A stretch of DNA of 64,000 nt. Source: Algoriphagus sp. CAU 1675. GTDB taxonomy: Bacteria > Bacteroidota > Bacteroidia > Cytophagales > Cyclobacteriaceae. The notes beneath the pieces were generated by a model. That model did no database searches, was not told the origin of the DNA, and was given only the letters and a program-made list of their open reading frames with translations. The position numbers and the translations under genes were made by a program. Location of the stretch: positions 186,001 to 250,000 of the forward strand of contig NZ_JARHUI010000002.1 in NCBI RefSeq assembly GCF_029222925.1, in the 5' to 3' direction. The stretch's first letter is position 1. Every line of letters starts with the position of its first letter. This document shows, piece by piece, positions 3,490-62,619 of the stretch.

Positions 3490-4935
3490 ATGGACCTAAA
3501 GCAACATATCCAAAAAGTAGATGAATACCTTTGGGAAATCCCCCAAAAAACCCGGGAAGGCATGCGCGTACCTGCTCAAATCTATGCCTCAGATAAGTTG
3601 ATGCAAGAGCTGGGAAATGATAATTCTTTGGAGCAACTCACCAATGTTGCCATGCTTCCCGGCATCAAAAAAGCTTCGATTGTTATGCCTGATGTTCATG
3701 AAGGCTATGGTTTTCCCATAGGCGGAGTGGCAGCAACCGAGTGGCCTCATGGGGTAATTTCTCCAGGAGGAATAGGATATGATATCAATTGTGGAGTCAG
3801 AATTCTTTGTTCCGAATTGGAAAGAAAGGATCTTAAAAATCGGGGAGAAGAACTCGCAAAAGCCCTCTATGCGCATATTCCCTCAGGGGTGGGAAAAGGA
3901 GGTTCCCTTCATCTGGATGAATCAGAACTGGATAAAGTATTGAGAAAAGGTGCACAATGGGCACTTGAAAACGGGTTTGCAGAAATGGAGGATATAGAAC
4001 ACATTGAATCCAATGGCTGCTTGAAAGATGCAGACCCAGACTTCGTGTCAGAATATGCAAAAAAACGAGGGGCTGACCAATTGGGAACCATAGGTTCGGG
4101 AAACCACTTTTTGGAAGTTTCTTATGTGGATGAAATTTTTGATTCTGAATCAGCTCGGGCATTTGGCTTGAAAAAGAACCAACTAATCATACTAATCCAC
4201 ACTGGATCCAGAGGCCTGGGACACCAAATTGCTTCAGATTACCTCAAACAAATGGTATCCACCTTAGATTCCTATCACATCCAATTACCAGACCGTGAAC
4301 TGGCCTGTGCACCCTTTGACTCCAAAGACGGTCAGGCCTATTTCAAAGCCATGGCTGCCGCAGCGAATTTTGCTTGGTGTAATAGACAGGTGATCACTTC
4401 AAAAACCAGGGAACTATGGAGGGAGTTTTTTGGCAAAGAAAAAGGGGGGCTTCGGCTTTTGTACGATGTAGCCCACAATATTGCCAAAGTTGAAGAGCAC
4501 ATCGTGGACGGAAAGAAAATAAAACTGATCATTCACAGAAAGGGCTCAACACGATCTTTTGGCCCCCACAACCCGGAAATCCCTGAGGCCCTCCGCTCCA
4601 CAGGACAACCCGTGATCATTCCGGGAAGCATGGGAACCGCATCCTATGTGATGGTAGGAACACAGACTGCCATGGAAAAAACATTTGGATCTACCTGTCA
4701 TGGGGCAGGAAGAAGAATGTCCCGGCATGCAGCCACCCGAAATGTCAACATCCATAATTTGGAAAAAGAACTATTGAGCATGGACATTCATGTGCGAGCC
4801 GGTTCAAGAAAAGGAGTAAGTGAAGAAGCTCCCATTGCCTACAAGGACATTGAAGAAGTGATCAATGTGGTTCACAATGCAGAAATCGCCCGAAAAGTGG
4901 CAAGACTGAAACCCATGGTCGTGATCAAAGGCTGA
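3490..4935 (+). CDS. rtcB: RNA-splicing ligase RtcB
   Basis: This is a full-length RtcB of 481 residues. Visible are PDVHEGYGFPIGGVAA, the metal site GYDINCGVR (Asp98, Cys101), GSGNHFLE (His206), HTGSRGLGHQ (His237), VAHN (His330) and STCHGAGRRMSRH, whose His404 is the residue that accepts GMP. RtcB joins 2',3'-cyclic phosphate (or 3'-phosphate) RNA ends to 5'-OH ends with GTP and manganese. In bacteria it serves RNA repair. The upstream archease supports an active, multiple-turnover enzyme. No RtcR regulator or RtcA cyclase gene is next to it. A 107-base gap separates it from the next small gene. Confidence 0.96.
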   Translation: MDLKQHIQKVDEYLWEIPQKTREGMRVPAQIYASDKLMQELGNDNSLEQLTNVAMLPGIKKASIVMPDVHEGYGFPIGGVAATEWPHGVISPGGIGYDINCGVRILCSELERKDLKNRGEELAKALYAHIPSGVGKGGSLHLDESELDKVLRKGAQWALENGFAEMEDIEHIESNGCLKDADPDFVSEYAKKRGADQLGTIGSGNHFLEVSYVDEIFDSESARAFGLKKNQLIILIHTGSRGLGHQIASDYLKQMVSTLDSYHIQLPDRELACAPFDSKDGQAYFKAMAAAANFAWCNRQVITSKTRELWREFFGKEKGGLRLLYDVAHNIAKVEEHIVDGKKIKLIIHRKGSTRSFGPHNPEIPEALRSTGQPVIIPGSMGTASYVMVGTQTAMEKTFGSTCHGAGRRMSRHAATRNVNIHNLEKELLSMDIHVRAGSRKGVSEEAPIAYKDIEEVINVVHNAEIARKVARLKPMVVIKG

Positions 4936-5317: not shown

Positions 5318-6277
5318 TTAAAAATTAAGAACTCCATCCTCTCCCAAAACCGTATCAAATTCCGATGAAGATTTTTGAAAGCGTCTCATCACCCATTGAT
5401 AATCTTCGCCAATGGCCTTATTGGCTTGGTAATCAAAAATCCTGACAGGAATTACTTCAAGCTTTTTCACTCCTGAACAACCCACATAAATCTCAAAAAA
5501 AGCTGAACGGTCATTTCTCAGCAAAGGATCTACTACATAATCATCCACAAAGTCCCCCGTATCATACAGGATCAAACCTCCATGATATTGTTCAACAGCC
5601 TGAAAAATATGAGCACTGTGACCATGGATTATATTCGCCCCATGATCAATCATAGAGTGGGCAAATTGGACAAATTCCTCTGGAGGGCTTTCTACCATAT
5701 TGGGGCCCCAGTGAATGGACACCACAAGGCAATCACACTGGCGCCTTGCTTTTTCTATTGTTTGGAGAACCTTTGCTCTATCTTTCTCACTTTCAATTTC
5801 CAGATAATTTGTTCCTGGCCCCTTACCAGCCTTCCAGGTCGATTCATTATCCGTCATTCCAATCACTCCAACCCTTATTCCTTTTATTTCAACAAATTCA
5901 GGGGACTCGGCTTCCTCTAGATTCATCCCGGCTCCTACATATTTGATACCAGCCCCTTTCAGAGTATTTAGCGTTTCAATCAATCCAGACTCCCCATAGT
6001 CCAAAACATGGTTATTGGCCAGATTTACCACCGTTATCCTTGCCTTGACTAAGCTTTCTACCTTATCAGGCTTGGCTTTGAAGTTGAAAGTTTTGAGCAC
6101 TTTATCCTCACTATTTGTCAAGGCAGTTTCCAAGTTGATGATATTCAAATCAGTTTGTTGCATGATTGGCAAAACATCACCCCACGGATACCAATATCCC
6201 CGCTCGTCCAGGATGTGATCAAGTGTTCTCCCCAACATCACATCTCCGGCAAATCCAATTCTAAGAGTTTGGTCCAT
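5318..6277 (-). CDS. CapA-family metallophosphatase-like protein
   Basis: The 319-residue protein shows the calcineurin-like fold of the CapA/PgsA group: GFAGDVMLGR near the N-terminus, INLETALT, LANNHVLDYG, VSIHWGPN and HGHSAHIFQ. The Asp, Glu, Asn and His residues of these motifs form the metal site in relatives. CapA proteins take part in poly-gamma-glutamate capsule formation, but this one has no membrane anchor and none of the pgsB/C genes nearby. It is therefore more likely a cytoplasmic phosphoesterase of unknown substrate (inference). Confidence 0.85.
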   Translation of the reverse strand: MDQTLRIGFAGDVMLGRTLDHILDERGYWYPWGDVLPIMQQTDLNIINLETALTNSEDKVLKTFNFKAKPDKVESLVKARITVVNLANNHVLDYGESGLIETLNTLKGAGIKYVGAGMNLEEAESPEFVEIKGIRVGVIGMTDNESTWKAGKGPGTNYLEIESEKDRAKVLQTIEKARRQCDCLVVSIHWGPNMVESPPEEFVQFAHSMIDHGANIIHGHSAHIFQAVEQYHGGLILYDTGDFVDDYVVDPLLRNDRSAFFEIYVGCSGVKKLEVIPVRIFDYQANKAIGEDYQWVMRRFQKSSSEFDTVLGEDGVLNF

Positions 6278-6424: not shown

Positions 6425-8925
<2,501 letters not shown>

Positions 8926-54810: not shown

Positions 54811-54884
54811 TCCTCCTTAGCTCAGCTGGTTAGAGCACATGACTGTTAATCATGGGGTCCTTGGTTCGAGCCCAAGAGGGGGAG
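54811..54884 (+). tRNA. tRNA-Asn (anticodon GTT)
   Basis: All arms fold: acceptor TCCTCCT with AGGGGGA (one T-G pair), D-arm GCTC/GAGC, anticodon stem CATGA/TCATG with GTT at 54845-54847, and T-stem CTTGG/CCAAG around TTCGAGC. The discriminator base is G and CCA is not encoded. The 3' part is duplicated at two downstream places. Confidence 0.96.
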
Positions 54885-54926
54885 CAAAACAAAAAAGAGG
54901 TCAAAATTGACCTCTTTTTTTGTTTT
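54872..54926 (+). repeat. Repeat copy A: tRNA-Asn 3' end plus terminator
   Basis: This parent copy consists of the T-stem 3' strand, acceptor 3' strand and the terminator hairpin behind the tRNA. Its first 21 bases are identical to copy B. The 21 bases 54882-54902 are identical to copy C. Confidence 0.85.
54891..54921. terminator. Bidirectional terminator between tRNA-Asn and the efflux operon
   Basis: GAGGTCAA and TTGACCTC pair, extended by A and T runs on both sides. It ends tRNA-Asn transcription and also lies 103 bases after the stop of the leftward RND permease gene. Confidence 0.88.
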
Positions 54927-55023
54927 AAACCCAGAAGAATGGGATTTTAATAGATTTAAGAAAAGACTATATTCTTTTAATCTAAAATTCCTATTCAAGT
55001 TCGAAGACTTCGCCCTTTCGATT

Positions 55024-58000
55024 TTACCCATATTTCAGAAACCTTGCCTTCAACCTATCCACTGCCTCATAGACTACCGGCACCAGATACACCGTCAATA
55101 TCAAAGAAGAAAGCAGCCCTCCTATAATCACCCAAGCCAGGCCATTTTTCCATTCGCTGGCTGTGCCGCTTGCCAAGGCAATGGGTAGCATTCCGATCAC
55201 CATAGAGAGTGTAGTCATCAAAATGGGTCGCATCCTACCTTTTCCGGCTTCGAGGAGTGCTTCGCGAGTTCCCATTCCTCTTTCTTTCAGCTGATTGGTG
55301 AAATCCACGATCAAAATCGCATTTTTGGCCACCAAGCCCATCAGCATGATCAAGCCCAAGAGGGCAAACAAACTCAGGTTGTTCATCGACAGATTGAGAG
55401 CCAAAAAGGCTCCAATCACCGCAACAGGAATGGAAAACAGTACCACAAATGGATAGACAAAGCTATCGTACAGTGCTACCATGATCAGGTAAATCAACAG
55501 AAAGGAAATCAACAAAACCTGTCCCAAAGCCCCAAAACTGTCATTTTGCCGCTTGATATCCGAACCCCAAACCATGCTGATTCCTTCGGGAAGTGGATTG
55601 TCCTTCAAGTAGGCCACTACCTCATCAGCCACCGTACCGGAAGGTCGGCCCAAAGCATCAGCGGTAATGGTTAAAGCTGACTGTCTGTCTTTTCGCTCGA
55701 GCATGGAAGGAGAATTTGCCTGAATTACTTCTGCAACTTGTGACAAGACAATCGGCATTCCCTTGGGATTGATTAACTGGAAGTTTTTGACATCTTCGTA
55801 AGATTCTCGGTTGAAATTATCCAATTGAATCCGAACGGGATACTCTGTTCCGGCCTCAGTCAAGGTCGCATCCTCATTTCCAGCAAATGCATTTCGAAGC
55901 GTCAAGCCTAGTACGGCATTGGACAAGCCCAATCGCTGCAATTTGTCTGAATCTGGGATCACCTGATATTCAGGACTCCCTTCCTCGACTGATAATTTGA
56001 CATCATCCGCTCCGGGGATTTTTTCGAGAACCAAAGCCAATTCTTTCCCCACTTTCATCACCTGCTCTTGATCTGGGCCGCTGAGCGTCATCTCGATCGG
56101 AGCCGAACGGGGAATCAATCCCAAGGCAGTCATCGAGAAACTGATTCCAGGAAAAGTCCGCTTAAGCTCTTCCCGCACGTCTTTCATGAATTTTTCAGTA
56201 GAAAGTCCTCCGATTTCATTCTTGTCCAATAGCTGTATGGTCAGTTCAGATTTATAAGGCAATCCCACTCCCAAACTTCCGATCCCCGAGGTAGGTCCGG
56301 CCACATTGCTGAACAGCGTAGAGACTTCTGGCTGCTGCAAGAGAAACTGCTCCACTTGTTGGGTACGGAGATTATTTTCCTTCACACTTGTAGACTTGTC
56401 GTATTCCAGATAAAGTCGAAACCTTCCCTGATCACCCGTTGCAATTAGTTCTTTGCCAATAATCCCCTGCTTCATAATGGCCCCTGTCATTGCGAAAAGC
56501 AAAATCACAATCCCGGTAAAAGCTAACTTATGACTCAAAACCCAAGTTAACTGCCTGCCATACCAAGCGATAAAGCCATCCAACCAATGCTCAAAGCCAA
56601 GCAAAAACCGATTAAATGCATGGGCCGGCTTGAGGTCCTCGGCTTTACCGATTCGGGAAGCCATCCAGGGTGTAAGCGTAAACCCAACCAACAAACTGGT
56701 CAGCGTAGAAGTAATCACCACGACCGAAAACTGCTTCAGCATATCGGCCACAAAAACCTGAAGGAATAGAATAGGAAGGAATACCACTACGTCAACCAAC
56801 GTGATGGAAAGCGCCGAAAAACCGATTTCCATTCGTCCATCCATAGCCGCAGACTTTTTGTCTTTCCCCATATCCAAGTGGCGTTGGATATTTTCCAAAA
56901 CCACCGTCGCATCATCCACTAATATCCCAATGATCAGCGACATGGCCAGCAAAGTCATCAGATTGAGCGTATAACCCAAGAGCCACATCACCGCAAAGGC
57001 TGTTACCAGCGAAGTCGGGATCGCTACCAAGACGATCAATGAATTTCGGAAGCTGCGCAAAAAGAGCAGCATCACCAATGCCACCAAGATCACGGCAAGG
57101 ATCAAATCAAAAACTACCGAATTTACCGCTGCGATGGTATTGTCTGTGCTGTCATCCGCGATGATAAAGGTCACTCCATCCGAAGCATACTGAGCTTCAA
57201 TTTGGGAAAGTTTTTCTCGGACTGCCTTCGATACATCGACCGCATTGGCATCGCCCTGCTTTTTGAGCAAGAGCCCGATTCCTTCCTTGCCGTTGAATCG
57301 GCTTACAGAAGTGATTTCTTTAGTTCCGTCCCTGACTATTGCCAAATCCCGAACATAAATCGGTGCTCCCGGCATCGGCATGGCCACCTGGACATTTTCG
57401 ATTTCGGATAACTCATTGAATTTACCGCTTAATCGAACAGAACTTTGAACTTGATCTGTCTGCACATTTCCGGCGGGAATATCCAAGCCAGCCCGATTGA
57501 TGGACTCAACCACCTGCTGAAGTGGAATCTGATAAAAGCGCAACTTCTCAGGATCGACTTTCACCTGAATCTCCCGCTGCTCTCCACCCAAAACCGTGAT
57601 TTCCGCCACCCCTTTCAATTGCTGGATTTGGGGCAAAAACTCATCCGCCATTTTCTGGTAAAAAGCCCTGGACTCCAATTGACTGGTCGCGGTAATGGAC
57701 ATAATGGGGAGGTCGTTTGGTGAAACTTTCGTCATCACCGGCGAAAGCACATCCTCTGGCAGGTCCTTGGAAATATTGTCAATGTAACGCTGTGCATCCT
57801 GCATGGCCTGATCGAGGTCCACACCATAATTCATGTTGGCGATGACCACCGATGCATTGGGCATGGACTTCGTAATCAAATAGTCAATCCCTTCCAGATT
57901 GGAAAGCGCATCTTCAACTTTCTCCGAAACCGAAGACTGTACCTCATCCGGAGACGCTCCAGGATAGCCCGTCTTGATCACCAAAACAGGTTGATTGAAA

Positions 58001-58116
58001 TCCGGCATCAGTTCGTAGGACAAATTGGTAAAGCCGATGTATCCGAGGAGGATCAACAAGCTGAACAAGACAATGATCAGCGAGGGTCGGTTGATGGAAA
58101 TGGAGGTGATATTCAT
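55024..58116 (-). CDS. RND efflux transporter permease (AcrB/HAE1-like)
   Basis: The 1030-residue inner membrane pump shows the usual two-fold layout with twelve membrane helices and two large periplasmic loops. It opens with SINRPSLIIVLFSLLILLG, and GILVDDATVVLENI in helix 4 carries the proton-relay aspartates. The second half has GLVAKNAILIVDFTNQL. It exports hydrophobic compounds by proton antiport with its adaptor and TolC-like partners. It overlaps the adaptor stop by four bases. It is the last gene of the operon and closest to tRNA-Asn. Confidence 0.95.
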   Translation of the reverse strand: MNITSISINRPSLIIVLFSLLILLGYIGFTNLSYELMPDFNQPVLVIKTGYPGASPDEVQSSVSEKVEDALSNLEGIDYLITKSMPNASVVIANMNYGVDLDQAMQDAQRYIDNISKDLPEDVLSPVMTKVSPNDLPIMSITATSQLESRAFYQKMADEFLPQIQQLKGVAEITVLGGEQREIQVKVDPEKLRFYQIPLQQVVESINRAGLDIPAGNVQTDQVQSSVRLSGKFNELSEIENVQVAMPMPGAPIYVRDLAIVRDGTKEITSVSRFNGKEGIGLLLKKQGDANAVDVSKAVREKLSQIEAQYASDGVTFIIADDSTDNTIAAVNSVVFDLILAVILVALVMLLFLRSFRNSLIVLVAIPTSLVTAFAVMWLLGYTLNLMTLLAMSLIIGILVDDATVVLENIQRHLDMGKDKKSAAMDGRMEIGFSALSITLVDVVVFLPILFLQVFVADMLKQFSVVVITSTLTSLLVGFTLTPWMASRIGKAEDLKPAHAFNRFLLGFEHWLDGFIAWYGRQLTWVLSHKLAFTGIVILLFAMTGAIMKQGIIGKELIATGDQGRFRLYLEYDKSTSVKENNLRTQQVEQFLLQQPEVSTLFSNVAGPTSGIGSLGVGLPYKSELTIQLLDKNEIGGLSTEKFMKDVREELKRTFPGISFSMTALGLIPRSAPIEMTLSGPDQEQVMKVGKELALVLEKIPGADDVKLSVEEGSPEYQVIPDSDKLQRLGLSNAVLGLTLRNAFAGNEDATLTEAGTEYPVRIQLDNFNRESYEDVKNFQLINPKGMPIVLSQVAEVIQANSPSMLERKDRQSALTITADALGRPSGTVADEVVAYLKDNPLPEGISMVWGSDIKRQNDSFGALGQVLLISFLLIYLIMVALYDSFVYPFVVLFSIPVAVIGAFLALNLSMNNLSLFALLGLIMLMGLVAKNAILIVDFTNQLKERGMGTREALLEAGKGRMRPILMTTLSMVIGMLPIALASGTASEWKNGLAWVIIGGLLSSLILTVYLVPVVYEAVDRLKARFLKYG

Positions 58117-59174
58117 CGCTCAGAAGAAAAATTGGGTTCCACATTCGCACCTTCAAATACATTGACTAAGCCTCCGGTGATGACTAGGTCTCCGGACTTG
58201 ACCCCGCTTTTCAAAATGAGGTGATCACCGATTCGTTGAGCGATGGCAATAGACTGAAGTTTTGCCTTGCCTTCTTGAATCACATAGACCTTGGGATCCA
58301 AGTCCGAACCTACCAAAGCAGAGGCTGGTAAAATCACTCCTTCAGAATTTGCTTCGCCTTTCACCAAGACTTCCCCAAACATTCCGGCTTTGACAGAAAG
58401 GTTTGCTGTATTTTCAAAAGTCAGTTCCACCGGAAAATTATTTCCGACAGAGCCTCGACTGCCCACCAAGCTTACTCTGGCGGGAAATTCGGTAGAAAGA
58501 GAGGCGATTTTCACAAGCTGGGCACTCCCGTTTTGAAAAAAGCCCAAATCATTTTCCGGAACCTGAATAGTCAATTTCACTCGACTGAGATCAGTTACCT
58601 GGATCAGGGGTTTTCCCGGAGCGGCAAAATCTCCCACTTCGGTCATTTTTGCGGTAACAATTCCCGAAAATGGAGCTTTGATGGATGACTTTGCCAACTG
58701 CTCTTTTAGCGTAGCAATTTGCACTTCCAAACCTGCCAAAGCAAGTTCGGTCTTTTCCAACTGAATCCCCTGAATCGCTTCATTTTCCACCAACACCCGA
58801 TACCGCTTCAGGTCGGCTTCCAACCCGCCTTTCTGAACCTCAGCCGCTTTGAGCTGAAGCTGAAGTAAGGCCACATCCTGCTGCACCAGCAGTTGATTGG
58901 CACCGACACGCTGACCGACTTCCACGGCAATACTTGTGACTTTCCCCTGTACTTCTGCGCTGATTTTGCCTTCCCGAATGGGTTCGATCACACCAGAAAA
59001 GCTGCGCCGATTGTCCAAATGACCTTCTGTCACTTTTACTGCAAAAACAGGTACTGCTTGATCTTTGTCATAAACATAGACTCGCTCTTCGGCTGCCTTT
59101 TTATTGAGTACCAACCTGACCGCGACGATCGCGATCAAGGCCAAAGGAATAATATAGATGAGGATCTTTTTCAT
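58113..59174 (-). CDS. RND efflux periplasmic adaptor subunit
   Basis: The 353-residue protein starts MKKILIYIIPLALIAIVAV with a single anchor helix. It shows the lipoyl halves (ISAEVQGKVTSIAVEVGQRV and IKAPFSGIVTAKMTEVGDF), a coiled hairpin between them and a beta-barrel part with TDLSRVKLTIQVPEND. It bridges the pump and the outer membrane channel. A frame extension of 25 codons upstream overlaps the TolC-like gene and was rejected. The stop overlaps the permease start (ATGA). Confidence 0.93.
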   Translation of the reverse strand: MKKILIYIIPLALIAIVAVRLVLNKKAAEERVYVYDKDQAVPVFAVKVTEGHLDNRRSFSGVIEPIREGKISAEVQGKVTSIAVEVGQRVGANQLLVQQDVALLQLQLKAAEVQKGGLEADLKRYRVLVENEAIQGIQLEKTELALAGLEVQIATLKEQLAKSSIKAPFSGIVTAKMTEVGDFAAPGKPLIQVTDLSRVKLTIQVPENDLGFFQNGSAQLVKIASLSTEFPARVSLVGSRGSVGNNFPVELTFENTANLSVKAGMFGEVLVKGEANSEGVILPASALVGSDLDPKVYVIQEGKAKLQSIAIAQRIGDHLILKSGVKSGDLVITGGLVNVFEGANVEPNFSSER

Positions 59175-59181
59175 GGTAAGA

Positions 59182-60498
59182 TCAATTGAGAAGTGTGGAT
59201 GATGATTTTTTGAGTTCGAGGGTGGCTTTGAGGTATTCGACCATCGCATCGAGATAGGCTTGTTGGGAAGTTCTTAGCGATTGATCGGCAAGCAGGATAT
59301 CGGTCAAAGTAGCCAATCCCTCCTGCTGCAAAAGGAGAGATTTAGTGTATATGGACTCGGCTAGTTGGATCTGAGAGGCAGTAGTCAGGATTTGGTTTTT
59401 TGCTGTAGCCTGCTGACGCAAAGCTGTCTGATATTGGACCTGATTCTGATCGGCAAGCAGTGATTTTTGCAAGGTGGCATTTTCCAGTTCCAGTTCTTTC
59501 TGGCGGATTTTTTTGGTTGTTGCTGTCCCGTTGAAAATCGGAAAACTGATCTGCGCTCCGATAAAACTCTGGGGATAAAAATTCAAAAAAGACTCAGGAG
59601 CACCGCTATATCCAAAACCGGTCATTCCATAGTTGGCGATCAAATTGACGCTGGGAATCCGAGAATTCTTGATGGTGGTCAGTTCCTGATTGATCACTTT
59701 TTCGCGGAGTTCCTGAATTCTGATCTCTGAGGTCAATCCTGCAATAGGCACTTCTTCTTCACCCATTTGCACTTCCGAAACCACATCCATTTCTTGGTCC
59801 AGCGGTATGCCTATTGCCAATTTAAGCTGCTGTAGCACCGTCATATATTGATTTCTCAGTCGGATAATCTGGGATTGCAAGTGCTGATTTTGAAGGATTA
59901 CCTTATCCAGATCCGTTCTGCTGGCCAATTTCTGCTCATACAGCAAGCGAACGTTTCGCTCGAGTTTCTCGCCGTTGACTTGGTTGGCTTCGAAAAAAGC
60001 AACCTGATTTTTCAAAATCTGTGCATTGTAATACAGATTAGAAACCTCCAGATAAACCTGCTCCTCAGTTTTGACCCGCTGCCACTCGGCCAACTCCTGA
60101 TACGATTCAGAAATCTGAATTCCTGCCATCACCTGGGGATCGTAGATTGGCATTCGCAGGTTAATATTCCCCATAATGGTATGAGGAACACCAAATTGCA
60201 CCGCCCGATACACTCCCTCCGGTCCACCAAAAGCAACCTGGGGAAGCATTTGGTAGGGAAGTTGGCTGAAGTACTTGTAATCAGCAGTCGCTAGGATCTT
60301 GGGCAAAAGCTGACTTCGCGACTCCTGATTTTTCAAGTCCGCAGCAGCCAGCTGATTGGTGGCCATCTTCAAGGCCTTATTGCGTAGCAAGGCCGTATCC
60401 AGACTTTGCTTCAGCGTCCATTCCTGTGCCTGTACCTTCGCTCCGATTAGGAAAGCCAGAAGGAATAAAACAGAAAGTTTGTGAATATTTACTAACAT
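59182..60498 (-). CDS. TolC-family outer membrane efflux protein
   Basis: The 438-residue protein has a signal peptide (LSVLFLLAFLIGAKVQA). Two repeats of long helices and short barrel strands are visible (EWTLKQSLDTALLRNKALK at the start; SFIGAQISFPIFNGTATTKKI in the second half). It forms the outer membrane duct of the tripartite pump. The start region TTAGTAAATATT resembles one half of the TetR operator upstream, which may be chance. It lies seven bases before the adaptor gene. Confidence 0.92.
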   Translation of the reverse strand: MLVNIHKLSVLFLLAFLIGAKVQAQEWTLKQSLDTALLRNKALKMATNQLAAADLKNQESRSQLLPKILATADYKYFSQLPYQMLPQVAFGGPEGVYRAVQFGVPHTIMGNINLRMPIYDPQVMAGIQISESYQELAEWQRVKTEEQVYLEVSNLYYNAQILKNQVAFFEANQVNGEKLERNVRLLYEQKLASRTDLDKVILQNQHLQSQIIRLRNQYMTVLQQLKLAIGIPLDQEMDVVSEVQMGEEEVPIAGLTSEIRIQELREKVINQELTTIKNSRIPSVNLIANYGMTGFGYSGAPESFLNFYPQSFIGAQISFPIFNGTATTKKIRQKELELENATLQKSLLADQNQVQYQTALRQQATAKNQILTTASQIQLAESIYTKSLLLQQEGLATLTDILLADQSLRTSQQAYLDAMVEYLKATLELKKSSSTLLN

Positions 60499-60514
60499 CT
60501 AGAGGTAAATTTTT

Positions 60515-61090
60515 TTAGCGTTTAATCAGGGTTAAAATCGATTGGATCAGTTCCATTCCGGAGGTATTCAAGTCAAAATTGAATCCGGAAACTCGCCATT
60601 TGAACATCTGAAGGCGAAAGGCCCCCAAGACCAAATGCACCAATTGCTCTGCTGAAAGGTCAGATCTAACTATCCCATGAGCCTGCCCCTCTTGGATCAA
60701 AGGCATCAAGAAACCCATTTTCGTCTGCATCAAGGCCAAAATTGCCTGATTGATTTGATCGCTTTCTTCCCAAAGTCCATCAGAAAACACGGCTACCACA
60801 AAGTGTGGATGCTGGGAAAAAAAGGCAAACTGACTGGAAAAAATAGCCTTGAACCGATCTTCTACCGCTAAATTAGGGTCTAGAGAAGAAAGTCTCGAGA
60901 CCATATTTTCCCGAAGGAATTCGAGTAAGGTCAGGATTATTGCTTCTTTACTTGAAAAGTGCCGATAGATAGCCGCTTCTGAAAATCCCATTTCCAAAGC
61001 CAGCTTTTTGGTAGTCAAGCCTCCAATCCCTGATTTGGTCAGAATTCTGCCTGCTGCATCGATCAGTTCTTTTTGTCTTTCGGAGATCAT
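60515..61090 (-). CDS. TetR/AcrR-family repressor of the efflux operon
   Basis: The 191-residue protein has the N-terminal helix-turn-helix (GGLTTKKLALEMGFSEAAIYRHF) and a helical ligand-binding C-terminal domain. It is the first gene of the operon, 16 bases before the TolC-like gene, and a perfect palindrome lies 10 bases before its start. It therefore most likely represses its own operon until a pump substrate binds. Confidence 0.93.
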   Translation of the reverse strand: MISERQKELIDAAGRILTKSGIGGLTTKKLALEMGFSEAAIYRHFSSKEAIILTLLEFLRENMVSRLSSLDPNLAVEDRFKAIFSSQFAFFSQHPHFVVAVFSDGLWEESDQINQAILALMQTKMGFLMPLIQEGQAHGIVRSDLSAEQLVHLVLGAFRLQMFKWRVSGFNFDLNTSGMELIQSILTLIKR

Positions 61091-61099
61091 TTTTAGTTA

Positions 61100-61115
61100 G
61101 TTAGTATTTACTAAC
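61100..61115 (-). promoter_or_regulatory. Palindromic operator of the TetR-type repressor
   Basis: GTTAGTA-TT-TACTAAC is a perfect palindrome directly upstream of the repressor start. A related half (ATTTACTAAC) occurs at the start of the TolC-like gene (60487-60496). Confidence 0.75.
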
Positions 61116-61181
61116 AAAGGTAATCCACATTTTTTAAAATGCAAACTTTTGAGCTTTTGAATAGGCAGAGGCTATTTGATA

Positions 61182-61328
61182 ATGAAAAAATTCAGACTTA
61201 TTGTCTTTTTCCTGTTTGTCCTTTCTCTTAAAAAATCTACAAACTATTTAGCCCCAGCTACAGCTTTTGCCAAGAGGGGGAGCAAAACAAGAAAGAGGTT
61301 AGTATTGACCTCTTTTTTTTGTTTTTAG
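61182..61328 (+). pseudogene. Possible truncated exported-protein gene ending in repeat copy B
   Basis: A 48-codon frame starts with a signal-peptide-like sequence (MKKFRLIVFFLFVLSL) and then runs through the tRNA-derived repeat to a stop just after the terminator. The second half is only repeat sequence read as protein. It may be the 5' remnant of a gene cut when the islet formed. It could also be chance in an AT-rich spacer. Confidence 0.25.
61270..61325 (+). repeat. Repeat copy B: tRNA-Asn 3' end plus terminator
   Basis: The first 21 bases are identical to the tRNA-Asn 3' region, followed by the same hairpin with few changes (stem AAAGAGGT/ACCTCTTT at 61292-61315). Nothing upstream resembles the 5' part of a tRNA. 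The hairpin can also end the leftward lipoprotein gene. Confidence 0.85.
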
Positions 61329-61354
61329 ACTTTACAAATGGAGGTGGTCTCCAG

Positions 61355-62377
61355 CTATTTTTTCATTATCTGGATCATATTTGCTGAATTTCGATCCGAA
61401 ATAAAAACCAATCCGGATCGGATTTCTTGTTCTCTTCGGAGAATATTATCAAATGAAATGCCCAGGTGCTTTTCCCAGGTTACTCCTCCATCCTTGGAAC
61501 TCATCAACCAATTTTTGCAGGGAGTGTAAGGCAGGCATCCCTCGTCCAATAAGAATCCGATCACATCCTGACCTGTCTGAGATAGAATGTAGATCGGCTG
61601 ATCCAAACGAGTCTCGGTTCGGTTGGCCCAATTCCCTTGGATTGTTTCAGTTAACCTCATTTCATAGTATCGATCAGCATCTACAGGGTAAAAAAAGGAT
61701 TCTCCCCCAGAAGGATTGCTCCGAAATGGAGTCCAGGTCTCTCCCCCATCAATCGTGCGATAATGTGCCCCATCCAATCCTATAATAAATCCTAAATCTT
61801 CGGTTTTCCAGAGGAATTGAATCAGGTTGACCCGGCTGAAATCTACACTCGTCGGATTCCACGTTTCCCCTCCGTCTATCGTTTCGAAAAGCTGAAATTG
61901 GTCATTTAGAGAGCCAGTATATTCCACAGCATAAGCAAAGCCACGGGTTGGGCTCGAAAAGGAAATCCTTTCAAAAAAAGTGTTTTTCCGCTCAAAAACT
62001 TCCCATGTTTCCCCTCCATCCTTACTTCGATAAACAATTCCTTGGGGACTCTTATTATCTTCCTCCAATCGGGTACTCGTCAACCACAGCTGCTGCTCAT
62101 CCAATGCAAAAAAAGCTGGTGGATTGGGAGAATAAGGCATTTCGAAAATGCCAGTGAAGTTTCTTCCCCCATCGGTAGTCTTGTAAAGAAAAGGTCCGGT
62201 ACGAAACCCTACCCATTCATTGACAAATTGTGTCTTATCAGAGAAGTTAAAGAGCCAGGGAGAAATTGTCTCTTTTATCTCCCAATTTTCCAGTAGGGTA
62301 GTTTCACGGGGAGGAAGTTCATCTTTTCCGCAAGCCAAACAAAAAACTAAAACAATCCAGTAAAACCGCTTAATCAT
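61355..62377 (-). CDS. YCF48/BNR-type beta-propeller lipoprotein
   Basis: The 340-residue protein has a lipoprotein signal (FYWIVLVFCLACG). The body contains several BNR-like repeats of the type KTTDGGRNF, RSKDGGETWE, ETIDGGETWNP, RTIDGGETWTP and SSKDGGVTWE, which form a beta-propeller similar to YCF48/sialidase-like folds. No catalytic residues of sialidases were recognised. An upstream ATG 13 codons earlier was rejected because it would precede the lipoprotein signal. The gene lies alone between repeat copies B and C. Confidence 0.85.
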   Translation of the reverse strand: MIKRFYWIVLVFCLACGKDELPPRETTLLENWEIKETISPWLFNFSDKTQFVNEWVGFRTGPFLYKTTDGGRNFTGIFEMPYSPNPPAFFALDEQQLWLTSTRLEEDNKSPQGIVYRSKDGGETWEVFERKNTFFERISFSSPTRGFAYAVEYTGSLNDQFQLFETIDGGETWNPTSVDFSRVNLIQFLWKTEDLGFIIGLDGAHYRTIDGGETWTPFRSNPSGGESFFYPVDADRYYEMRLTETIQGNWANRTETRLDQPIYILSQTGQDVIGFLLDEGCLPYTPCKNWLMSSKDGGVTWEKHLGISFDNILRREQEIRSGLVFISDRNSANMIQIMKK

Positions 62378-62571
62378 AAGTCCAAATGATAAAGATTTAG
62401 GGAAAATATAAACCAATTATTTAATAGATAAAACCCTTTTGCTCGAAACCCCAAAAATGAGATCCTCTATAAATTTTAAGGAACGCGAATGATAAAACAG
62501 TTTGAAATTATTTCTTCTTGAATTTTTCTAAAAAGGAAGAAGGTCTAATTTCGGATGCAACAATTATTGAC
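62378..62571. other. Gene-free spacer before repeat copy C
   Basis: I see no credible gene between 62378 and 62775. The only structure is repeat copy C; the remainder on both sides is AT-rich spacer. Confidence 0.6.
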
Positions 62572-62619
62572 GGGGAGAGCAAAACAAAAAAGAGGTCTAA
62601 AACGACCTCTTTTTTGTTT
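62572..62619 (+). repeat. Repeat copy C: diverged tRNA-Asn 3' end plus terminator
   Basis: Bases 62577-62597 are identical to 54882-54902. The acceptor-derived part upstream is degraded (CGGGGAGAGC in place of GAGGGGGAGC). The hairpin GAGGTC/GACCTC with A and T runs (62586-62615) remains and can end the leftward DUF4382 gene. Confidence 0.75.

What the first reader, a model, noticed from the sequence alone, without database searches (positions are those of the whole stretch)
54811..62619. Three decaying copies of the tRNA-Asn 3' end mark stacked islets
The tRNA-Asn 3' end with its terminator occurs at 54872, 61270 and 62572. Copy B keeps all 21 tRNA-proximal bases, while copy C is degraded in the acceptor part. 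Each interval carries a leftward cargo: a TetR-RND operon, then a lone YCF48-like lipoprotein gene. Decay increasing with distance fits successive integrations at the tRNA, oldest outermost. No recombinase is present, so either the mover acted in trans or it was lost. The repeats also give every module a ready-made bidirectional terminator, which may be why this junction tolerates insertions.
Basis: partly seen in the sequence, partly recalled or inferred. Interest (0 to 1): 0.85.

Follow-up and report, generated by a model that had tools for sequence, protein, structure and literature searches.

The report
Gene-cassette stack at a tRNA-Asn gene
The repeated tRNA ends are the seams of small gene cassettes stacked beside one tRNA gene in this bacterium and in many relatives; some of these cassettes appear to have moved between species as whole units although nearly all lack a recombinase of their own.

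Summary
The three copies are real and, with their terminator, occur only here in the 3.81-Mb genome. They are seams of inserted modules. The bases in front of copies B and C, however, are not simply decayed tRNA: they belong to a conserved 28-nt module-end motif ending in GGGGAGC. A model built only from other species' seams ranks C and B first and second on the + strand of the surrounding 50 kb.

The motif lies beside tRNA-Asn in Algoriphagus, Belliella, Aquiflexum and Indibacter. It bounds 42 modules under 12 kb (median 1.4 kb); 1 of their 108 ORFs matches a recombinase profile. The window's TetR-RND module recurs as the same unit in two relatives, 94.8% identical to each other against 68-82% in flanks, with edges at the GGGGAGC core. 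A toxin-like cassette is 92% identical between Algoriphagus and Belliella, flanks 70%.

So stacked islets: yes; decay with distance: no. Best explanation: recombinase-less cassettes inserted at the tRNA-Asn 3' end by a recombinase acting in trans, each restoring tRNA tail and terminator. A large serine recombinase is the leading, unproven candidate. Closest known: CIMEs and SCC composite islands.

The parts
54811..54885 (+). tRNA-Asn (GTT), the anchor; core GGGGAGC at its 3' end (54879-54885)
   Evidence: ARAGORN; Rfam RF00005 (54811-54884); sequence
54886..54925 (+). linker and terminator stem-loop after the intact tRNA (copy A); by the module model it belongs to the tRNA-proximal module
   Evidence: inverted repeat I11; module edges in relatives
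54879..61283 (.). Module 1 (TetR-RND cassette), from core to core, about 6.4 kb
   Evidence: same unit of 6317-6318 bp in G017 and G031
55024..58116 (-). RND pump, ACR_tran
   Evidence: PF00873 E 1.4e-238
58113..59174 (-). membrane-fusion protein (HlyD_D23); start codon chosen by eye, the longest ORF begins at 59249
   Evidence: PF16576
59182..60498 (-). outer-membrane efflux protein
   Evidence: PF02321
60515..61090 (-). TetR-family regulator
   Evidence: PF00440
61256..61283 (+). 28-nt module-end motif plus core at seam B (AGCTACAGCTTTTGCCAAGAGGGGGAGC)
61284..61324 (+). linker and terminator of seam B
   Evidence: D1
61277..62580 (.). Module 2 (YCF48-like protein cassette), about 1.3 kb
   Evidence: spacing 1297
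61355..62416 (-). YCF48/BNR-repeat protein with a lipoprotein-like N terminus (lipoprotein reading by eye)
   Evidence: PF14870, PF02012
62553..62580 (+). 28-nt module-end motif plus altered core at seam C (GGATGCAACAATTATTGACGGGGAGAGC)
62582..62619 (+). terminator of seam C, perfect 16-bp stem
   Evidence: I14

Best explanation
The locus is a short array of integrated cassettes at the 3' end of tRNA-Asn. Each cassette, read from the tRNA outward, is: core GGGGAGC (last 7 nt of the tRNA) - short linker - intrinsic terminator - cargo - conserved 21-nt end motif - core. A site-specific recombinase supplied from elsewhere joins the end motif plus core of a circular cassette to the tRNA T-arm plus core. 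The crossover falls inside GGGGAGC, so the incoming cassette rebuilds the tRNA's last bases and gives it a new terminator, and the old tail and terminator are pushed outward with the cassette's end motif in front of them. The regenerated tRNA is again a target, so cassettes stack. SHOWN: the modular structure, edges at the core in the compared pairs, the conserved end motif, different cargo and order in relatives, higher identity of four shared modules than of their flanks, one filled/empty site pair, near-absence of recombinase genes in small modules. INFERRED: circular intermediate, trans action, newest-next-to-tRNA order, and the enzyme. The most likely enzyme is a large serine recombinase of the tRNA-targeting clade found beside tRNA-Asn in relatives (about 0.5 within this explanation).
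For: Terminator-bearing repeat confined to this locus in the own genome. End-motif model trained on 6 foreign seams: C (18.0) and B (15.4) are 1st and 2nd on the + strand of 50 kb, next 12.2; over 59 region sets (1,334,029 bases, both strands) 17 of the top 18 hits are followed by a GGG(G/A)AGC tail, 6 of them the training seams. In the genus 39 matches (up to 3 mismatches) in 23 of 72 genomes versus 1 for the reversed pattern; by hand count, 22 of the 39 are on the same contig as the tRNA-Asn, all 22 downstream on its strand, and 17 cannot be placed. 37 stretches in genome contigs, 0 in viral contigs. Shared modules versus flanks: RND module G017-G031 94.8% over 6366 bp, flanks 68-82%; 2.8-kb module G019-G013 89.6%, only other match 232 bp at the tRNA, 76%; 5.5-kb module G017-G019 97.8%, flanks 88-89% left and 90-93% right; zeta-toxin-like cassette of Algoriphagus G011 and Belliella L176 92.4-92.6%, upstream flank 70%. 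Edges at GGGGAGC in the G017-G031 and G017-G019 pairs. Filled/empty: the stretches flanking the RND module in G017 abut in G019, where an 87-bp overlap is single; it is double in G017. 1 recombinase among 108 ORFs of 42 small modules. Serine recombinase: genes overlap the tRNA-Asn 3' end in G033, G013, G051, a remnant in G046, others 1.9 and 32 kb downstream in G055 and G017; the two closest relatives outside the genus in the 245 family genomes searched, 62% and 47%, also flank tRNA-Asn; the left block resembles the tRNA T-arm best at a 5-bp shift (0.565, best of 16, permutation p about 0.014), as reported for attP versus attB (PMC3783163, passages).
Against: In the window the RND module is only about 75% identical to its relatives, hardly above flanking genes (69-73%), so recent transfer is not shown for the window itself. 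The YCF48 module was not found as a cassette elsewhere: 4 other of 72 genomes have homologs at E<=1e-30, none with a motif in the short fetched flank. One motif-like seam (G050 C67, 3 mismatches) lies about 380 bp after a tRNA-Met on the same strand. One of the 37 genome contigs titles is a Sphingomonadales MAG, unexplained. For the enzyme: 18 of 23 motif-bearing genus genomes have no PF07508 match, and 15 of 23 other motif-bearing genomes searched have none; no complete serine-recombinase element with the common motif at its far end was found, and the one whose far end could be read (G013) ends in a different sequence scoring -13.0; the right half-site is not conserved; one module (L153) carries a 174-aa tyrosine recombinase next to its seam. 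I chose the centre and motif frame after seeing the data, so the 5-bp result is suggestive only.
Confidence: 0.82

Rival explanations
1. One reading: plain copies of the tRNA 3' end, left by successive classical tyrosine-integrase islands, decaying with age.
For: Classical islands do occur at this tRNA: tyrosine integrases directly after tRNA-Asn in G024, G071, G036 and G002, with long distal tRNA copies in G024 (100% over positions 8-75), G036 (98.7% over 9-85) and G071 (86.8% over 8-120).
Against: Those copies span most of the tRNA. Window copies B and C keep at most the last 7-14 nt of the tRNA plus terminator and carry the foreign end motif in front.
Confidence: 0.08
2. Same cassette model, but moved by a tyrosine recombinase (a small one like that of L153, or a resident Xer/IntI-like one) rather than by a serine recombinase. 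This competes only with the enzyme part of the best explanation.
For: A strictly conserved 7-nt core fits a tyrosine-type overlap region (recalled); 174-aa Phage_integrase protein beside the seam in L153; the own genome has, on another contig, an NF040815 recombinase over its curated cut-off (227.1 against 220).
Against: 1 of 108 module ORFs only; the L153 protein's best match in 72 genus genomes is 29% identical, E 2.5e-8; the NF040815-type gene has no match at E<=1e-40 in motif-bearing G019, G024, G033, G036, G037 (G037 is an incomplete assembly); no conserved binding arm right of the core.
Confidence: 0.3
3. Modules were exchanged by homologous recombination between arrays, using the tRNA and terminators as short homologies, with no dedicated recombinase.
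For: Repeats of about 50-90 bp exist between modules.
Against: Edges fall at a 7-nt core in front of which the sequences differ; a 28-nt motif is conserved at the same side of modules across families.
Confidence: 0.1
4. An integron-type array, with the motif acting as a folded single-strand attC.
For: Single-gene cassettes, a site at one end of each, stacking next to an anchor; the own genome has a recombinase of the family NF040815, described as 'site-specific tyrosine recombinase/integron integrase'.
Against: Three representative motifs do not fold clearly better than shuffles (z -0.5, -1.1, -1.0); palindrome pairs covary only in part; no Phage_integrase match on the window's contig; that recombinase misses the integron-integrase cut-off TIGR02249 (213 against 265).
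Confidence: 0.04

Closest known systems
CIME accretion (cis-mobilizable elements stacked at a tRNA or gene 3' end)
   Same: Elements without integration genes that keep their att sites and stack in tandem at one site (PMC5704250, passages).
   Different: Here small cassettes, often one gene, recur between species and genera, with a common one-sided motif and a terminator each; they do not look like remnants of individual large elements.
SCC composite islands (staphylococcal cassette chromosome, Ccr large serine recombinases)
   Same: Tandem cassettes at the 3' end of one gene, some without recombinase (pseudo-SCC) (PMC6243372, passages); the G033 recombinase's best NCBIfam match is CcrB, far below its cut-off (96.8 against 900 bits).
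   Different: Target is tRNA-Asn, hosts are nearly all Bacteroidota, the site sequence differs, each cassette restores tRNA tail and terminator; enzyme not proven.
Integron gene cassettes
   Same: Discrete small cassettes with a recombination site at one end, shuffled cargo including toxin-like genes.
   Different: No integron integrase at the anchor, no folded attC-like site, anchor is a tRNA gene.
tRNA-targeted genomic islands with tyrosine integrases (Islander type)
   Same: Displaced tRNA end marks the far edge (PMC4383910, start of abstract in a search listing).
   Different: Only a very short piece of tRNA is displaced, and the modules lack the integrase.
Tycheposons
   Same: Cargo modules at tRNA genes (recalled; search listing only).
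   Different: Not compared in sequence here; different hosts (recalled).

Membership tests
Site-specific cassette array at tRNA-Asn | Same module in different flanks with edges at one fixed core | tested here: met
   RND module (G017, G031), 5.5-kb module (G017, G019); toxin-like cassette (G011, L176). Not shown for the window's second module
CIME accretion | Element lacks integrase but keeps att-like ends and lies in tandem | tested here: met
   42 modules, 1 recombinase in 108 ORFs
CIME accretion | Derived by decay from a known ICE or IME | not tested
   no ancestral element identified; no conjugation genes sought in the small modules
CIME accretion | Can be excised or transferred with a helper | not testable with these tools
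   needs cells
SCC (Ccr-type) element | Insertion at rlmH/orfX 3' end | tested here: not met
   target is tRNA-Asn
SCC (Ccr-type) element | Carries ccr | tested here: not met
   no PF07508 match in the genome
Integron | Integron integrase adjacent to the anchor site | tested here: not met
   no Phage_integrase match on the window's contig; one of the other-contig recombinases passes NF040815 but not TIGR02249
Integron | attC site folding as a single strand | tested here: not met
   three motifs, z between -0.5 and -1.1
Classical tyrosine-integrase tRNA island | Integrase gene at one end and long tRNA-end repeat | tested here: not met
   window; met by G024 and G036
Large-serine-recombinase att site | Outer motif shifted by 5 bp between attB and attP half-sites | tested here: inconclusive
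   left half fits, p about 0.014, frame chosen after seeing the data; right half not conserved

The most novel reading that the evidence does not exclude
Bacteroidota have a cassette system of their own, parallel to integrons: recombinase-free cassettes of mostly a few genes or one, each with a one-sided 28-nt site and a built-in terminator, stacked at tRNA-Asn and exchanged across species and genera by helper recombinases carried on larger elements that use the same core.
Probability: 0.4. Interest if true: 0.88.

Novelty: new variant of a known kind. Interest (0 to 1): 0.7.

Why it matters
If right, it gives a precise sequence rule for finding mobile cassettes in Bacteroidota, explains how genes without any recombinase keep arriving at one site without breaking what seems to be the genome's only tRNA-Asn gene (no second close match; inference), and names testable helper enzymes. 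Five literature searches aimed at such arrays and one at tycheposons, in an open-access PMC library only, showed no paper describing them. Titles and abstract starts were seen, 10 of 53 papers; two reviews were looked at by passage, none whole.

Tried and rejected
Rejected: a scattered terminator family; chance repeats; pure decay of tRNA copies; a phage carrying the motif (no exact match in viral contigs); a known RNA family at the seams (only tRNA found in window, L176 and L161); an attC-like hairpin.

Led nowhere: far ends of serine-recombinase elements (7 region sets of family genomes; no tRNA was found in one, G285; no convincing repeat in the other six; L266 was fetched for the same purpose and not examined); far ends of the G254 and G179 elements (contig ends first); an association of PF07508 with the motif in the genus (5 of 12 recombinase genomes carry the motif, 18 of 60 others; hand count, not a clear link); the L153 recombinase in the genus; the YCF48 module elsewhere.

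Rows dropped: 13 of 72 genus genomes had no tRNA-Asn region fetched for (gene not found by me in the listing, or short contigs). Of 50 intervals, 44 end in a motif; 42 of these are under 12 kb. The two larger ones (G013 33.2 kb, G017 58.6 kb) do contain a large serine recombinase, and of the 6 intervals that end in a longer tRNA copy, 5 contain a tyrosine recombinase; these 8 are not in the '1 of 108' count, which also leaves out ORFs under 80 aa. Pfam was run on 40 of 74 cluster representatives.
Full report
OBSERVATION. The window has one tRNA gene, tRNA-Asn at 54811-54885. Its 3' end with terminator recurs at 61270 and about 62570. In the whole 3.81-Mb genome the terminator-bearing match exists only at these three places; the four other places matched cover the tRNA body only. 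The first interval holds an RND efflux operon with TetR, the second a YCF48/BNR-repeat protein. The window's contig has no Phage_integrase match (4 elsewhere in the genome) and the genome no PF07508 serine recombinase.

WHAT THE COPIES ARE. In relatives the same tail and terminator recur downstream of tRNA-Asn, and the bases in front of the displaced tail are alike from seam to seam. A weight model of 25 nt trained on six seams from other species puts window seams C and B first and second on the + strand of the 50-kb region (18.0 and 15.4; next 12.2). Over 59 region sets (1,334,029 bases) 17 of the top 18 hits carry the tail; 6 of the 17 are training seams. From 71 distinct junction sequences the conserved block runs from about -3 to +24, i.e. 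28 nt ending in GGGGAGC, while the linker after it varies. With that second model B and C are the only hits above 6 bits in the 64-kb window, both strands (34.2 and 8.9; B was 1 of the 71 it was built from). Among 58 genomes with sequence after tRNA-Asn, 57 different 36-nt sequences follow it; divergence alone could contribute to that number.

HOW WIDE. With up to 3 mismatches the pattern gives 39 matches in 23 of 72 genus genomes and 1 for the reversed control. By hand count, 22 of the 39 are on the same contig as a tRNA-Asn, all 22 downstream of it and on its strand; the other 17 are on contigs without it and cannot be placed, and one of these follows a tRNA-Met (G050). A scan of genome contigs gave 37 stretches; 36 titles name Bacteroidota taxa (Algoriphagus, Belliella, Aquiflexum, Indibacter, Marivirga, Flagellimonas and MAGs) and one a Sphingomonadales MAG; viral contigs gave none. 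Of 31 motif loci scanned for tRNAs 10 held one, tRNA-Asn each time. The genus name of the window rests on contig-length matches of relatives: G019 with A. limi, G017 with A. kandeliae, G024 with A. marincola, G038 with Algoriphagus sp. AK58.

MODULES. One search lists 50 intervals between marks; 44 end in a motif and 42 of these are under 12 kb, median 1.42 kb, 21 under 1.5 kb. They hold 108 ORFs of at least 80 aa in 74 clusters. Pfam on 40 cluster representatives found a zeta-toxin-like kinase, HigB, Fic, GIY-YIG, PIN, GNAT, glyoxalase, cupin, DinB, MFS, fatty-acid desaturase and others; several had no match. Profiles for large serine, small serine and tyrosine recombinases matched 1 of 108 (a 174-aa tyrosine recombinase in L153). 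The two motif-ended intervals above 12 kb (G013, G017) carry large serine recombinases, and five of the six intervals ending in a longer tRNA copy carry tyrosine recombinases.

MOBILITY. The window's RND module occurs as a 6318-bp unit directly after tRNA-Asn in G031 and as a 6317-bp unit, the third interval, in G017. Between those two it is 94.8% identical over 6366 bp, while matched flanks are 68-82%; homology starts and stops at the GGGGAGC core. A 5.5-kb module is 97.8% identical between G017 and G019, against 88-89% in left and 90-93% in right flanks. A 2.8-kb module is 89.6% identical between G019 and G013, whose only other match is 232 bp at the tRNA. A zeta-toxin-like cassette of about 1.05 kb is in G011, L161, L163 and twice in tandem in L176; Algoriphagus G011 and Belliella L176 share it at 92.4-92.6% with 70% upstream, so it has probably crossed genera. 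In G019 the stretches on both sides of G017's RND module abut, with an overlap of 87 bp that is present once in G019 and twice in G017: an empty and a filled site. The window's own RND module is only 75% identical to the others, its flanking genes 69-73%, so it looks like an old resident.

ENZYME. PF07508 is found in 12 of 72 genus genomes (17 matches) and in 8 of 23 other motif-bearing genomes searched. Genes for such proteins overlap the tRNA-Asn 3' end in G033, G013 and G051, a remnant does so in G046, and G055 and G017 carry one 1.9 and 32 kb downstream. Among 245 family genomes the G033 protein's nearest relatives outside the genus (62% in G179, 47% in G254) also sit at tRNA-Asn; of the 30 loci fetched 23 have a tRNA in the flank, of Asn, Pro, Arg, Leu, Ser, Met or Glu. 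Its best NCBIfam match is CcrB, far below the cut-off. Serine integrases place an outer motif 5 bp further out in attP than in attB (PMC3783163, passages). With the centre between GGGG and GAGC, a 5-bp shift is the best of 16 (0.565, p about 0.014), but I chose the frame after seeing the data and the right half shows no such conservation. The one serine-recombinase element whose far end could be read (G013, 30 kb) uses the same core but a different end sequence. I therefore give the serine recombinase about one chance in two; a tyrosine recombinase remains open.

Stacked islets: yes. Mover in trans or lost: yes. Terminator with every module: yes, and the model explains why, since an incoming module must give the tRNA a new tail and terminator. 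Decay with distance: no, because most of the mismatch is a conserved foreign motif, and the two models used disagree on whether B or C is the more degraded upstream. C's core does carry a change.

KNOWN KIND. The closest are CIME accretion (PMC5704250, passages) and SCC composite islands (PMC6243372, passages). It works like these; it is not an SCC element (target and ccr tests not met) nor an integron (no integrase at the anchor, no folding site). Small, recurrent, recombinase-free cassettes with a one-sided site at tRNA-Asn make it a new variant.

Noticed in passing
L176 (Belliella pelovolcani), tRNA-Asn 5802-5876, motifs at 4835, 3791, 2734 (- strand): Array of at least three motifs about 1.05 kb apart, two neighbouring modules encoding the same 191-aa zeta-toxin-like protein.
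   Followed up: partly
G024, G071, G036, G002 regions downstream of tRNA-Asn: Tyrosine integrases right after tRNA-Asn; in G024, G036 and G071 a long distal copy of the tRNA marks a classical island, a second class of element at the same site.
   Followed up: partly
G033, G013, G051 tRNA-Asn loci: The serine recombinase reading frame runs through the terminator and ends inside the tRNA gene on the other strand, so its last residues (GLEPRT or GLEPWT) are tRNA-encoded.
   Followed up: partly
L153, 581-1102: A 174-aa catalytic-domain-only tyrosine recombinase lies next to the far seam of its module.
   Followed up: partly
L228 (G050 C67), 7385-7459 and about 7839: A motif-like seam with tail lies about 380 bp downstream of a tRNA-Met, the only motif-like seam seen next to another tRNA.
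   Followed up: no
L166: A perfect motif 570 bp after tRNA-Asn in a contig titled as a Sphingomonadales MAG: misbinned Bacteroidota DNA or a wider host range.
   Followed up: no
G038 region +19 to +34 kb: Gene families that lie upstream of tRNA-Asn in the window lie downstream of it in G038 in reversed order, suggesting an inversion around this locus.
   Followed up: no
L165, 249-1031: Two neighbouring near-identical GIY-YIG reading frames; the first, as called mechanically, starts inside the tRNA-Asn gene.
   Followed up: no
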